Source of the DNA: Gallionellaceae bacterium
GTDB taxonomy: Bacteria > Pseudomonadota > Gammaproteobacteria > Burkholderiales > Gallionellaceae
Assembly (NCBI GenBank): GCA_030646595.1
Contig: JAUSKS010000109.1
Span: forward strand, 1-12,304
Reading direction: 5' to 3'
DNA: 12,304 bases
Under the pieces are notes generated by a model. The model did no database searches and was not told where the DNA came from. It saw nothing but the letters and a program-made list of their open reading frames with translations. Positions 2,573 through 8,513 of the stretch are shown here, one piece after another. How positions within the stretch are numbered: the first letter of the stretch is position 1; the number at the start of each line of letters is the position of its first letter. The position numbers and the translations under genes were made by a program.

Positions 2573-2605
2573 CCATGAACATCAAAACCTACCCCAACAG
2601 CCCCT
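2573..2605 (+). repeat. Left copy of 33-bp direct repeat (duplicated uvrB 5' end)
   Basis: These 33 bases (cc, ATG and the first ten uvrB codons plus one base) are identical to 8481-8513. Beyond the exact match the next bases remain partly similar (CC and TGCA are shared), so the original duplication may have been about 45 bp. The repeat encodes MNIKTYPNSP in both places. Confidence 0.95.
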
Positions 2606-3063
2606 GCCTCCTGCAAACCTATGTGGTTGCTTTGTGCACGTTGAGCTTTCTTTTTCTGTCGCGCATTATTGGCCAGATGATTCAATATTTCTACCCGGTA
2701 GAATGGTTACCTTCTCTTGAATCCTGGCAGGGGAGTTCGCTACCGTATGTTTTTTTGCTCGCTAGTCAGTTGATTATTTTGGTAGTCATGTTGCGCGTAA
2801 CATACCAGCATGCATCGGGTTGCGTTCGAAGAAATCCGAACAAGGGAAGATTTCTGATGGCTTTTGGGGCGCTGTACTTTGTCAGCATGTCTGGTCGGCT
2901 GGTCATAGGTCTGGCAAATCTCTCCAGCCATCCCTGGTTTAACAAGGCCATCCCCACATTTTTTCATTTGGTGTTGGCGACTTTTGTGTTATTGATTGCA
3001 GGATTCCACATGAACTGGGTGGGCAAGAGCAACAAGAATGATTTGGACGAGGCTATGCAATGA
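2575..3063 (+). CDS. Small four-helix membrane protein with a UvrB-derived N-terminus
   Basis: The 162-residue protein begins with MNIKTYPNSP, the same ten residues as UvrB, then passes straight into a hydrophobic segment. About four membrane helices are visible, near residues 11-33, 56-75, 92-114 and 126-147, with a basic loop at 85-92 (RRNPNKGR) and a charged tail. I do not recognise the family. The frame is open to 2425, but the bases above 2575 are promoter DNA, so the duplicated uvrB ATG is the likely start. No ribosome site precedes it. The stop overlaps the next gene by four bases (ATGA), pointing to translational coupling with the fatty-acid-hydroxylase-type enzyme. A partner subunit, electron-transfer anchor or transporter role is possible but unproven. 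Confidence 0.75.
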   Translation: MNIKTYPNSPCLLQTYVVALCTLSFLFLSRIIGQMIQYFYPVEWLPSLESWQGSSLPYVFLLASQLIILVVMLRVTYQHASGCVRRNPNKGRFLMAFGALYFVSMSGRLVIGLANLSSHPWFNKAIPTFFHLVLATFVLLIAGFHMNWVGKSNKNDLDEAMQ

Positions 3064-3956
3064 CAAACAAAGTGATGAGTTATTTAATCTATCCGACCGT
3101 TGTTGCATTGACTGTCGGGCTGTATGCATATTCAAGCAGTAATGGTGGCAACCTCGCTCTCAGCGCCTTTGGAACTGTTATTCTCGGCGCATTGCTGATT
3201 GCGTTTTTTGAACAGCTTTCGCCCTATCAACATAAATGGCGGCCAAGGTCTCAGGATGTAAAAGATGATTTGCTCTATACGGCTCTTATGCAGATTGGGG
3301 TACCCCGGCTATTGGGTTTTCTCCTGGTGTTGTTGCTTGCAGGGCAGATCGGGCCGGATGCACCTTTTGCCGGTATTTGGCCACGCGAGTGGCCCATTTC
3401 CGCACAAGTGTTACTGCTAATAATAAGTGCCGATTTCATGCGCTACTGGCTGCATCGCTGGTCGCACGAGACACCGCTCTTGTGGCGCCTGCATGCCGTG
3501 CACCATTCGACGGATCGGCTTTATTGGCTCAATACCAGCCGTTTTCACCCCATTGAGAAAACGCTGCAATTCATGTTGGATTCATTGCCCTTTATTCTGA
3601 TGGGTGTTGATCCGCGCGTGATCGGCTTCTGGTTTGTGCTGTACTCGGTTAATGGCTTCTTTCAGCATTCAAACATCCGCTTATTCTTTGGCCCGTTAAG
3701 CGGAATATTCAGCACAGCGGAACTGCATCGCTGGCACCACTCGCAAATTCCTGCCGAATCAAATTCCAACTACGCCAATGTGTTCATACTGTGGGATCGT
3801 CTCTTTGGAACTTACAACCGCCCGGCCAGAGAAGTCGGTACGCTTGGGCTGCTGAATCCAGATTACCCGATGGGCATCGTTCAGCAAATGAAGGCTCCGT
3901 TTGTGGCTGAGCTATACAGGCAGAATGAATCTTTGCAGCAGCAAGAAAATGATTGA
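3060..3956 (+). CDS. Sterol desaturase / fatty acid hydroxylase superfamily di-iron membrane enzyme
   Basis: The 298-residue protein shows the complete histidine set of this family: HRWSH (132-136), HAVHH (145-149), H163 in RFHP, H203 in FQHSN and HRWHH (223-227). These ligate a non-haem di-iron centre that hydroxylates or desaturates a lipid chain or ring using O2. Membrane segments are seen near 8-24, 33-50, 82-96, 114-131 and 172-200, with the active-site loops facing the cytoplasm. The C-terminal SNYANVFILWDRLFGTY is the usual end of the catalytic domain. The start overlaps the preceding gene by four bases, and its own stop overlaps the next gene by eight. True sterol synthesis is unlikely here, so an acyl chain, hopanoid or carotenoid-like substrate is more plausible. 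Confidence 0.9.
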   Translation: MTNKVMSYLIYPTVVALTVGLYAYSSSNGGNLALSAFGTVILGALLIAFFEQLSPYQHKWRPRSQDVKDDLLYTALMQIGVPRLLGFLLVLLLAGQIGPDAPFAGIWPREWPISAQVLLLIISADFMRYWLHRWSHETPLLWRLHAVHHSTDRLYWLNTSRFHPIEKTLQFMLDSLPFILMGVDPRVIGFWFVLYSVNGFFQHSNIRLFFGPLSGIFSTAELHRWHHSQIPAESNSNYANVFILWDRLFGTYNRPAREVGTLGLLNPDYPMGIVQQMKAPFVAELYRQNESLQQQEND

Positions 3957-6726: not shown

Positions 6727-8480
6727 AATTCTCATTAATCGGACTTAATAAAACTACTGTAATTATATTGATGTTAATCTCGCTGACAGGATGCCAGTGG
6801 GCTGCCAGAAATTATTTCTTGCCGAAAGACAACATCCGGCCAGCAATTTATAAAGTAGACATGCAACGGCATGCTGTCATGAAAACTTCGGATGACATTG
6901 AACTCGTAGCCGATATTTATTCTCCCCATGGCATTCAAAAATCTCCAACCATATTGGTCCGAATACCTTATTCCAAAACCCTCTCGAATCAGATTAAGGC
7001 GGGAGCGATTGCCCGCTTTTGGGCCAGTCGAGGGTACACGGCAATCATCCAAGGTACTCGTGGGCGGTATGAGTCAGGCGGGGAATATTACCCCTTGGTG
7101 TACGAGCGCAAAGACGGCATTGAAACACTGAACTGGATTGCCCGGCAGCCTTGGTATAACGGGAAAATAGGCATGTGGGGTGGGTCTACTTTTGGCTATA
7201 CCCAATGGGTGTTAGCGGATCAAGTGAACCCTGGTATTGCAGCTTTCAATATTCAAATATGCAGCACGGATTTTTATGGCATGTTCTACCCAGGCGGTGC
7301 ATTCTCGCTGGAGAGCGCACTTTTTTGGGCAGCGCGGAGTAACGGCAAGATTGACAAAGATCCTTCGTTAACTGACTTGGAAAATGGATATAAAGGATTT
7401 CCGTTAATTGAAGCAGATGATCGCGCTGTGGGGGACGTTCCATTTTTTAACGATTGGGCCAGTTACCCTGTTCGGGATAACTATTGGCTAAACATTGACG
7501 GCACAGATCGTCCGAAACAATTAAAGTCACCGGTACTTTTAATGGCTGGTTGGTTTGATCCCTTCCTTCCAACGCAACTCAATGACTTTGTGCGAGTGCG
7601 CAAAGAAGCTGAACCAGCAGTAGCTCGCAATTCTCAATTAATCATCGGGCCTTGGGCGCATGCAGAATCAGTTGCATTGCCTGGTGAGGCCAATTTAGAA
7701 GACTACCGCAAGGCTTCCCTGGCACCCAGTATTGAATGGTTTGATCAACATTTGTTGGCTGAAAATCAGCAACAGTCAAAACATGCCCCAGTCAAAATAT
7801 TTGTCATGGGAAGCAATGTTTGGAGAGATGAAGAAGAATGGCCACTTTCTCGAGCCATACAGACCCCCTACTATTTGAGTAGCCGTGGCGATGCTAATAG
7901 CTTGGCTGGGGCGGGGATGCTAACTCAGGAAATACCGGCAAGCGAACCATATGATACATTCATATATGACCCGCTTAACCCAGCTCCCACAAAGGGGGGA
8001 GCCATGCTGGGACTGCGCGCTGGGGTTGCTGTACAGAACGAAGTAGAAAGAAGAAAGGACGTGCTAATTTACACAAGCAACACTCTCAAGGAAGATATAG
8101 AAGTAACCGGCAATGTTGAAGTTACCTTATTTGTGGCGACGTCTGTATCGAACACAGATTTTTCTGCCAAGCTGGTGGACGTATACCCGGACGGCAAGGC
8201 TTACAATGTTTCAGATGGAATTTTAAGACGAAGTTACATCACGACTGAGGCACCAAGCGAAATAACAATTCACTTATGGCCTACCAGCATGGTTTTTAAA
8301 ACGGGACATAAACTTCGTTTGGAAATCAGTAGCAGTAACTATCCGCGTTATGATCGTAATCCTAATACTGGCAACAATATTGCCACAGAGGAAAAAATTA
8401 TCAGCGCAGTACAAAAAGTTTTTCATGGTGCCTCTGCACTGTCAAAATTGACTTTGCCCATTATTCCAAAATTAGAATAA
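6723..8480 (+). CDS. CocE/NonD-family alpha/beta-hydrolase, predicted lipoprotein
   Basis: The start at 6723 overlaps the epimerase stop (ATGA) and gives 585 residues. Residues 1-24 form a lipoprotein signal: a basic start, the hydrophobic stretch TTVIILMLIS and lipobox LTGC with C24 as the lipid-modified cysteine. The mature enzyme is therefore expected on the periplasmic side of a membrane. The X-Pro dipeptidyl-peptidase S15 domain follows, with nucleophile S155 in GGSTFGY, D279 in AGWFDPF and H313 in GPWAHAE. The C-terminal jelly-roll domain is seen around residues 450-575 (VEVTLFVATSVSNTDFSAKLVDVYPDG). Relatives hydrolyse esters (cocaine esterase), acylated amides or X-Pro peptides. The position after GH3 and epimerase genes suggests cleavage or transfer of an acyl-amino acid or peptide-like product. 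The stop TAA lies two bases before the uvrB ATG. Confidence 0.9.
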   Translation: MKFSLIGLNKTTVIILMLISLTGCQWAARNYFLPKDNIRPAIYKVDMQRHAVMKTSDDIELVADIYSPHGIQKSPTILVRIPYSKTLSNQIKAGAIARFWASRGYTAIIQGTRGRYESGGEYYPLVYERKDGIETLNWIARQPWYNGKIGMWGGSTFGYTQWVLADQVNPGIAAFNIQICSTDFYGMFYPGGAFSLESALFWAARSNGKIDKDPSLTDLENGYKGFPLIEADDRAVGDVPFFNDWASYPVRDNYWLNIDGTDRPKQLKSPVLLMAGWFDPFLPTQLNDFVRVRKEAEPAVARNSQLIIGPWAHAESVALPGEANLEDYRKASLAPSIEWFDQHLLAENQQQSKHAPVKIFVMGSNVWRDEEEWPLSRAIQTPYYLSSRGDANSLAGAGMLTQEIPASEPYDTFIYDPLNPAPTKGGAMLGLRAGVAVQNEVERRKDVLIYTSNTLKEDIEVTGNVEVTLFVATSVSNTDFSAKLVDVYPDGKAYNVSDGILRRSYITTEAPSEITIHLWPTSMVFKTGHKLRLEISSSNYPRYDRNPNTGNNIATEEKIISAVQKVFHGASALSKLTLPIIPKLE

Positions 8481-8513
8481 CCATGAACATCAAAACCTAC
8501 CCCAACAGCCCCT
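8481..8513 (+). repeat. Right copy of 33-bp direct repeat (native uvrB 5' end)
   Basis: Identical to 2573-2605. This copy reads on into the full uvrB gene, so it marks the rebuilt gene start and the right border of the presumed insertion. The spacing between copies is 5,908 bases. Confidence 0.95.

What the first reader, a model, noticed from the sequence alone, without database searches (positions are those of the whole stretch)
2573..8513. Five-gene block inserted into the 5' end of uvrB, with the gene start duplicated
A 33-bp exact repeat covering the uvrB start occurs 5,908 bases apart. The right copy leads into full uvrB; the left copy lies behind a good promoter. The DNA between is more AT-rich in places, all in one direction, and ends exactly at the last stop codon. 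This is the expected mark of an element that enters the start of a housekeeping gene and rebuilds it. Entry at a gene start without any recombinase in the block is unusual.
Basis: partly seen in the sequence, partly recalled or inferred. Interest (0 to 1): 0.85.

Follow-up and report, generated by a model that had tools for sequence, protein, structure and literature searches.

The report
uvrB start repeatedly captures foreign genes
In a Nitrotoga relative, a five-gene lipid-type operon sits between two copies of the start of the DNA-repair gene uvrB, with its first gene fused to the uvrB promoter and start codon; cut-off uvrB starts beside other foreign genes recur in related bacteria, so this looks like a real, recurring way of capturing genes with no recombinase in sight.

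Summary
The repeat is real: 33 nt exact (43 nt at 91%), 5,908 nt apart. The left copy carries the uvrB promoter; the right copy begins directly after the stop codon of the last inserted gene, 2 nt before the uvrB ATG. Relatives show the empty site, and a Nitrotoga carries four of the five genes elsewhere. The left copy is no dead scar: gene 1 is read in frame from the uvrB ATG. Of 70 homologues found, four (77-86% identical) clearly carry the same fusion and a fifth partly, which argues strongly against an assembly chimera at the left junction; the right junction has no such check. The window also holds a third, decayed uvrB promoter/start at 598-707. Among 150 family genomes searched, nine hold 12 extra uvrB starts, cut between codon 10 and 378 and mostly with promoter, followed for example by toxin-antitoxin, ATPase or transporter genes; weaker relics occur in others. 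No recombinase was recognised. Best explanation: homologous recombination anchored in uvrB on one side and illegitimate joining (or single-crossover integration) on the other, repeated over time, leaving promoter-bearing stumps that drive cargo. A new variant of insertion with long target duplication / minimal mobile elements. The crossover mechanism is inferred, not shown.

The parts
598..707 (+). decayed third copy of the uvrB promoter and start (relic), upstream of a VapBC-like pair
   Evidence: nhmmer profile of 46 uvrB promoter/start regions, E 0.0028; reversed-sequence decoys gave one hit, E 0.95; sequence
718..754 (.). near-palindrome TTGTAAATT..GAATTGACAATTTG just after the relic; a similar one follows the uvrB stump in G131, G133 and (shortened) G149
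   Evidence: inverted repeat I2; same motif by eye
902..1563 (+). VapB-like antitoxin and VapC-like PIN toxin (cargo also at the uvrB loci of G031, G027, G087)
   Evidence: PIN PF01850; 79-80% DNA identity to L065, L062, L193
1773..2423 (-). membrane protein, weakly YdjM-like (below the Pfam cut-off)
2535..2562 (+). uvrB promoter (TTGGCA-16-TACAAT); the -10 box ends 12 nt before the ATG
   Evidence: conserved upstream of uvrB in relatives
2573..2615 (+). left copy of the uvrB start: ATG 2575, codons 1-14 (MNIKTYPNSPCLLQ)
2575..3063 (+). gene 1, small membrane protein fused in frame to the uvrB start
3060..3956 (+). gene 2, fatty acid hydroxylase (PF04116), OlsE-like below the NCBIfam cut-off
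3952..5610 (+). gene 3, GH3-family protein, OlsH-like below the NCBIfam cut-off
5617..6726 (+). gene 4, enolase-superfamily (mandelate racemase / muconate lactonizing type) enzyme
6723..8480 (+). gene 5, CocE/NonD-family hydrolase with a lipoprotein-like signal (LTGC, by eye)
8481..8523 (+). right copy of the uvrB start, without promoter
8483..10507 (+). complete uvrB (674 aa)

Best explanation
The interval upstream of uvrB in Gallionellaceae is a recombination hotspot that gains cargo without a recombinase. Incoming DNA from a relative that carries cargo in front of its own uvrB recombines homologously inside uvrB on the right; its left end is joined illegitimately inside the recipient's uvrB (or a circle carrying cargo plus a uvrB start integrates by one crossover). 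Either way a complete uvrB remains downstream, and a stump of promoter plus first codons remains upstream. The stump is useful: here it gives the operon a promoter, a start codon and 13 more codons, and uvrB is now the last gene of that operon, its old promoter 5.9 kb away. Shown: duplication, empty sites, in-frame fusion also in other sequences, recurrence in other genera, copies of different ancestry in one genome. Inferred: the crossover mechanism, transformation as the route, co-transcription, leaderless start.
For: Empty site: the promoter runs directly into uvrB in G035, G028, G016, G004, G032 and others. Ground state: aatA divergent and adjacent to uvrB; of 105 loci with full uvrB, 22 have aatA adjacent, 22 have it 1.1-8.5 kb away (measured from a conserved aatA stretch, so about 0.45 kb of each is aatA itself), 45 have none within at least 7 kb, 16 are too short to tell. 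Fusion: of 70 gene-1 homologues, P0002, P0003, P0004 and P0029 match the UvrB start (9-10 of 14 residues, score 48-55; next best 24), P0005 partly. The right end follows the natural C-terminal region of CocE, compared with L066 and L092. Twelve strong extra starts in 9 genomes, e.g. G131 codons 1-23, then an AAA/DUF4143 ATPase gene, then uvrB from its ATG; G168 1-257; G031 1-370 then VapBC. Different origin: the G031 stump is 94.5% identical to G154 but 89.9% to its own uvrB; G168 copies are 90.0% alike. Mosaic uvrB in G071 with a native-type start relic 9.7 kb upstream (2 of 2000 shuffles). Captured genes joined to a stump: in frame here; ATGA in G031 C26 and, in a weak relic, G106; TGATG in G125 (by eye).
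Against: The mosaic signal for the window's own uvrB is weak (45 of 2000 shuffles) and stronger signals occur in G004 and G016, where no stump was found (12 and 16 of 2000; G016 has only 202 nt upstream; G028 61, G035 136). In G071 the last 225 nt also lie nearer to other genera. In G027 the two copies are close (94.6%). No donor sequence is known, so junction microhomology could not be tested. 33-43 nt is short for RecA pairing (recalled). Among 54 direct repeats (E <= 1e-6) in 100 loci with full uvrB on the contig, only 2 touch uvrB, so strong stumps are uncommon there. Some native gene-1 N-termini resemble the UvrB start weakly (P0022, 6 of 14; P0008, 4 of 14). Natural competence was not examined. 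Right copies that start at or within 2 nt of the ATG (window, G131, G168) are not explained by random joining.
Confidence: 0.6

Rival explanations
1. Local tandem duplication of promoter+uvrB, followed by cargo entry and decay of the first copy.
For: Every extra copy that shares a fetched contig with a full or contig-cut uvrB is upstream and in the same orientation; in G027 the left copy's best match is the right copy (94.6%).
Against: In G031 the stump is closer to other genera than to its own uvrB; G168 copies differ by 10%. In the window, G131 and G168 the right copy lacks the promoter, which a simple duplication would have copied.
Confidence: 0.15
2. Integrative element with an attachment site in the uvrB start that rebuilds the gene, its integrase lost or acting in trans.
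For: The 33-nt identity spans the start codon, and elements that enter gene 5' ends are known (recalled).
Against: No recombinase recognised in 9 window proteins or in 20 cargo-region proteins of G168, G131, G133, G031, G027 and G125 (not every cargo ORF was scanned); duplicated length varies from 10 to 378 codons; no match of the block in 72,556 plasmid or 50,697 phage records.
Confidence: 0.08
3. Assembly chimera joined through the 33-nt repeat.
For: The genome is a draft in 333 contigs, 84% complete; read coverage is not available.
Against: The left junction is present as a fused protein in four other sequences and partly in a fifth. The right junction has no such independent copy.
Confidence: 0.04
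4. Insertion with long target duplication by an unknown active process tied to toxin-antitoxin or restriction genes.
For: VapBC-like, HTH or methylase genes neighbour stumps in G031, G131 and the window; the pattern matches insertion with long target duplication as described in PMC1643837 and PMC3874152 (passages seen).
Against: None of the five proteins of the window's own block is a TA or RM protein; G125 carries a transporter and the ROK cases a kinase.
Confidence: 0.13

Closest known systems
Insertion with long target duplication (Nobusato et al. 2000, not seen itself; passages of PMC1643837, PMC3874152, PMC3031569)
   Same: Insertion relative to an empty site, flanked by a long direct duplication of variable length.
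   Different: Described for RM genes in Helicobacter; here the target is repeatedly the start of one gene, the upstream copy keeps a promoter, and the window's cargo is a metabolic operon fused to it.
Minimal mobile element (Saunders and Snyder 2002, not seen itself; definition in a passage of PMC3898611)
   Same: Different whole-gene cassettes between two conserved genes (aatA and uvrB), no mobility genes recognised.
   Different: Leaves truncated, promoter-bearing copies of one flanking gene, sometimes in series.
Homology-facilitated illegitimate recombination (PMC3240628, introduction read; T6SS immunity arrays, PMC5361080, passages)
   Same: Would have one homologous anchor and one illegitimate junction; successive events leave a series of remnants.
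   Different: Remnants here are 5' pieces of a housekeeping gene; whether recipient DNA was deleted, as is usual, could not be seen.
GH3-dependent ornithine lipid synthesis OlsH/OlsI (PMC12493201, abstract and sections 4 and 8 read)
   Same: GH3 protein in an operon with an alpha/beta-hydrolase-type protein.
   Different: NCBIfam equivalog cut-offs are not met; the hydrolase here is CocE/NonD type; extra hydroxylase and enolase-superfamily genes.

Membership tests
Insertion with long target duplication | empty site in a relative | tested here: met
   promoter directly joined to uvrB in G035, G028, G016, G004, G032
Insertion with long target duplication | long direct duplication of target, variable between cases | tested here: met
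   43 nt here; about 69 nt of coding sequence in G131 and G133, 0.77 kb in G168, 1.1 kb in G031
Insertion with long target duplication | restriction-modification cargo | tested here: not met
   window block is a lipid-type operon; of the cargo proteins scanned a C-5 methylase was found only in G031
Minimal mobile element | variable gene cassettes between two conserved genes | tested here: met
   aatA-uvrB distance from adjacent to more than 8 kb with different genes; aatA itself is not on the window
Minimal mobile element | exchange by homologous recombination only | not testable with these tools
   needs a transformation experiment or strain-level genomes
Homology-facilitated illegitimate recombination | 3-10 bp microhomology at the illegitimate junction | not testable with these tools
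   donor sequence unknown
Homology-facilitated illegitimate recombination | homologous crossover on the other side (mosaic gene) | tested here: inconclusive
   window uvrB 45 of 2000 shuffles; G071 2 of 2000; G004 and G016, with no stump found, 12 and 16 of 2000
Integrative element in a gene 5' end | site-specific recombinase | tested here: not met
   none recognised in 9 window proteins or 20 cargo-region proteins of relatives
Integrative element in a gene 5' end | fixed core sequence at both ends | tested here: not met
   stump length differs between cases
OlsH lyso-ornithine lipid synthetase | NCBIfam equivalog score of at least 620 | tested here: not met
   106.8 bits; GH3 Pfam domains are met
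OlsE ornithine lipid hydroxylase | NCBIfam equivalog score of at least 475 | tested here: not met
   190.3 bits

The most novel reading that the evidence does not exclude
The uvrB start of Gallionellaceae is a recombinase-free cassette platform and promoter trap: stumps of promoter plus 10-378 codons act as portable homology arms that let cargo excise, move between genera and re-enter uvrB by host recombination while always leaving one intact uvrB, and that place the cargo under a near-leaderless DNA-repair promoter by fusion or stop-start coupling. It would be an integron-like serial array without an integrase.
Probability: 0.3. Interest if true: 0.75.

Novelty: new variant of a known kind. 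Interest (0 to 1): 0.58.

Why it matters
It shows how genes without mobility functions can be added repeatedly next to a conserved gene and perhaps be expressed at once, by borrowing its promoter, start codon and first codons. The uvrB stumps mark and order the events, so the locus gives a natural record for testing illegitimate integration. It also warns annotators that a protein starting MNIKTYPNSP may be a uvrB fusion and that uvrB can end up as the last gene of an unrelated operon.

Tried and rejected
Phage or plasmid origin of the block: no match in plasmids or phages and none for gene 1 in viral contigs. Recombinase-driven entry: rejected as main explanation (see rivals). Paper searches for uvrB as an insertion site: 'uvrB' + 'insertion hotspot' + 'genomic island' gave one paper, on lincosamide resistance (listing and start of abstract seen); 'uvrB' + 'Gallionella' + 'insertion' gave none; the library holds only open-licence papers. 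A cDNA-like origin (right copies beginning near the likely transcript start in the window, G131 and G168) was considered and not pursued: three cases only; no search for a reverse transcriptase was made. A genome-wide survey for other gene-start duplications was not made; the local control found 52 direct repeats not touching uvrB, which were not examined one by one. 3'-only uvrB matches in G022 and G072 were not checked against contig ends, and one search did not list every match. The defence-family scan failed on a coordinate error and was not repeated. Three further profile hits at chance level (E 0.67-0.92) were set aside.
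Full report
What is in the sequence. The left copy lies behind a TTGGCA-16-TACAAT promoter whose last base is 12 nt before the ATG, so the mRNA should be leaderless or nearly so (inferred from the usual distance between -10 box and start, recalled). This is the only promoter-like site on the + strand between 2400 and 8600. The right copy starts directly after the stop codon of the last inserted gene, 2 nt before the ATG of the full uvrB. The block is 48.0% GC, uvrB 54.0%.

Where it comes from. The genome (G000) is a 333-contig draft. 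Its same-genus relative G001 has a contig of 35,559 bases, the length of a Candidatus Nitrotoga sp. BS record that carries the same genes, and Nitrotoga is placed in Gallionellaceae; the family name for the window is therefore an inference.

The block. Gene 1 is a small membrane protein without a Pfam or NCBIfam match; gene 2 a fatty acid hydroxylase, gene 3 a GH3 protein, gene 4 an enolase-superfamily enzyme, gene 5 a CocE/NonD hydrolase. Around 23 GH3 relatives in named genomes, gene 2 is present at 23 of 23, gene 4 at 20, gene 1 at 10 and gene 5 at 1. Genes 1-4 are together in Nitrotoga BS (between prmC and hemF by my reading of the ORFs) and in a Thiobacillus MAG, and all five occur in the same order in a Poribacteria MAG. 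So a ready-made operon was inserted. Inside the family, GH3 was found in 2 of 158 genomes at E <= 1e-40 and the hydroxylase in 2 of 150 at E <= 1e-50, both times the window's genome and G001; a piece of GH3 with genes 4 and 5 lies at a contig edge of G024. GH3 enzymes make N-acyl amino acids in ornithine-lipid synthesis (PMC12493201: abstract and sections 4 and 8 read), but the window's proteins score well below the NCBIfam cut-offs for OlsH and OlsE, so the product is unknown; an amino lipid is my best guess.

The fusion. Read from the uvrB ATG at 2575, gene 1 begins MNIKTYPNSPCLLQTYVVAL; the Nitrotoga BS homologue begins MCNKNTLAFPTYSHYLWAL. A search of 5.8 billion proteins gave 70 matches, P0001 being the window's own. 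Scored against the start of 82 full UvrB proteins, P0002, P0003 (at an internal Met), P0004 and P0029 match clearly (9-10 of 14 residues, score 48-55); P0005 matches partly (score 24); the best of the others, P0022, also reaches 24. The four are 77-86% identical to the window's protein; P0029 goes out of frame in its second half. P0004 lies on a 260-kb contig from an NCBI MAG. The fusion is therefore real and shared by several sequences. Whether uvrB follows the block there could not be read. The weak resemblance of some native N-termini to the UvrB start may have helped the joining; that is a guess.

Empty sites and ground state. In G035, G028, G016, G004, G032 and others the promoter runs straight into uvrB. 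In Nitrotoga-type genomes uvrB lies next to the divergent aatA. Of 105 loci with full uvrB, 22 have aatA adjacent (20 at 520-560 nt and 2 at 713 and 758 nt from the conserved aatA stretch, of which about 450 nt is aatA), 22 have it 1.1 to 8.5 kb away, 45 have none within at least 7 kb, 16 are too short to tell. The interval thus behaves as a hotspot of insertion.

Recurrence. A profile of 46 uvrB promoter/start regions (window excluded) was searched in 127 loci (1.48 Mb, a few overlapping: L068 repeats part of the window and is not counted). Besides the starts of full or contig-cut uvrB genes it found 12 strong extra copies in 9 genomes: G000, G027, G031 (two), G168, G131 (two, one without promoter), G078, G133, G125 (two), G149; and 7 weak relics at E 4.5e-6 to 0.024: G106, G085, G090, G029, the window at 598-707, G063, G071. 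Reversed sequences gave one hit, E 0.95; three forward hits at E 0.67-0.92 are at that level. Nine loci (L062, L065, L067, L070, L072, L075, L113, L114, L119) were fetched because a copy had been seen; in the 80 loci, chosen only for a uvrB match on the contig, there are no strong extra copies but 6 weak relics, plus one in G093 seen by self-comparison. A blast of the promoter/start against 150 family genomes matched 113; the 9 genomes above are among those 150. Where a full or contig-cut uvrB lies on the same fetched contig (12 copies: window two, G027, G168, G078, G133 and the six other weak relics), the extra copy is upstream and in the same orientation; for G031, G125, G131 and G149 this could not be judged. 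Comparing each full uvrB with its own upstream DNA gave 7 hits in 105 loci, 6 of them to positions -44 to +104 of the 2-kb gene and one, inverted, inside it. As a control, 100 of these loci hold 54 direct repeats at E <= 1e-6, of which 2 touch uvrB, both at its start.

Anatomy of other cases. G131: promoter + codons 1-23, then an AAA/DUF4143 ATPase gene, then a uvrB copy starting at its ATG without promoter and cut at about codon 378, then HTH and TA-like genes (TA-like by eye). G133: promoter + codons 1-23, a similar ATPase gene, HTH genes, a HEPN and a ParA-like protein, then promoter + full uvrB, with aatA at the far left. G168: codons 1-257, then DuOB and DUF488 proteins and an AbiEii-like ATPase, then uvrB from its ATG, cut by the contig end. 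G031: codons 1-370, VapBC, an HTH gene and part of a C-5 methylase on one contig. G027: a stump to about codon 247, EF-hand and two-component genes, then promoter + uvrB broken in two frames. G125: two stumps beside an aatA-like reading frame, the second (53 codons) joined by TGATG to an MFS transporter. G031 contig 26: about 11 codons, then a short tail joined by ATGA to a gene without Pfam match. G106, G085, G090, G063: a promoter-like relic leads into an open frame that is the ROK-kinase homologue; only in G106 is a start left, and it reaches the kinase by ATGA; these relics are weak and could be merely similar promoters. In the window the relic at 598-707 is followed by a palindrome that also follows the stumps of G131, G133 and, in shorter form, G149.

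Ancestry of the copies. The G031 stump (1,110 nt) is 94.5% identical to G154 of another genus and 89.9% to its own uvrB (rank 15 of 119). The G168 copies are 90.0% alike; the G027 copies 94.6%, the right one being the left one's best match. The G071 uvrB has its first 300 nt and its last 225 nt nearest to other genera and the rest nearest to its own genus, and a relic of the GTG-type start seen in its genus-mate G034 lies 9.7 kb upstream. The switch is significant for G071 (2 of 2000 shuffles), weak for the window (45 of 2000), and also present in G004 and G016, where no stump was found (12 and 16 of 2000).

Mechanism. No recombinase was recognised in 9 window proteins or 20 cargo-region proteins of relatives. 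A one-sided homologous event inside uvrB with illegitimate joining at the other end explains why the complete gene is the downstream one, why stumps begin with the promoter and end anywhere, and why copies may differ in ancestry. HFIR is documented in three naturally competent bacteria, and single-crossover integration of ligated linear DNA in E. coli (PMC3240628, introduction read); successive HFIR was proposed for T6SS immunity arrays (PMC5361080, passages), and transformation-induced duplications are reported in pneumococcus (PMC3784515, abstract and passages). The ATG-proximal right ends in the window, G131 and G168 remain unexplained.

Known kinds. Insertion with long target duplication and minimal mobile elements are the closest concepts (passages; the original papers were not seen). 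The new part is the repeated use of one gene start and the capture of its promoter and first codons by the cargo. Searches found no description of uvrB in this role, within an open-licence library only.

Noticed in passing
L113 4906-6560, L070 12345-14194: Cargo upstream of uvrB in other genomes includes a ParA-like protein with a RiboL-PSP-HEPN protein (G133) and an AbiEii-like ATPase followed by an unassigned 160-aa protein (G168): possible defence systems.
   Followed up: partly
L155 5858-6050, L159, L166, L176: A ROK-type kinase directly behind a uvrB-like promoter relic in four genomes, perhaps an old capture; ROK-like DNA occurs upstream of uvrB in other family members too.
   Followed up: partly
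L060 7300-9958 and L065 1-1000: By eye, a cytosine methylase appears split by an insertion element between two contigs of G031; the two contigs may be neighbours.
   Followed up: no
L175 -2332..-1643, L172 -1730..-1198, L130 -3893..-2860, L189 -3076..-470 (relative to the uvrB ATG): Other short direct repeats of about 60-115 nt upstream of uvrB that do not touch uvrB; possibly stumps of other genes or small repeated elements.
   Followed up: no
window 10831-11232: A second PIN-domain protein downstream of uvrB, before a PfkB-family kinase.
   Followed up: no
window 12233-12298: Inverted repeat of 18 nt (94% complementary) close to the end of the contig.
   Followed up: no
L062 6305-8171: The second uvrB copy of G027 is broken into two reading frames; either an assembly error or a damaged gene.
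   Followed up: no
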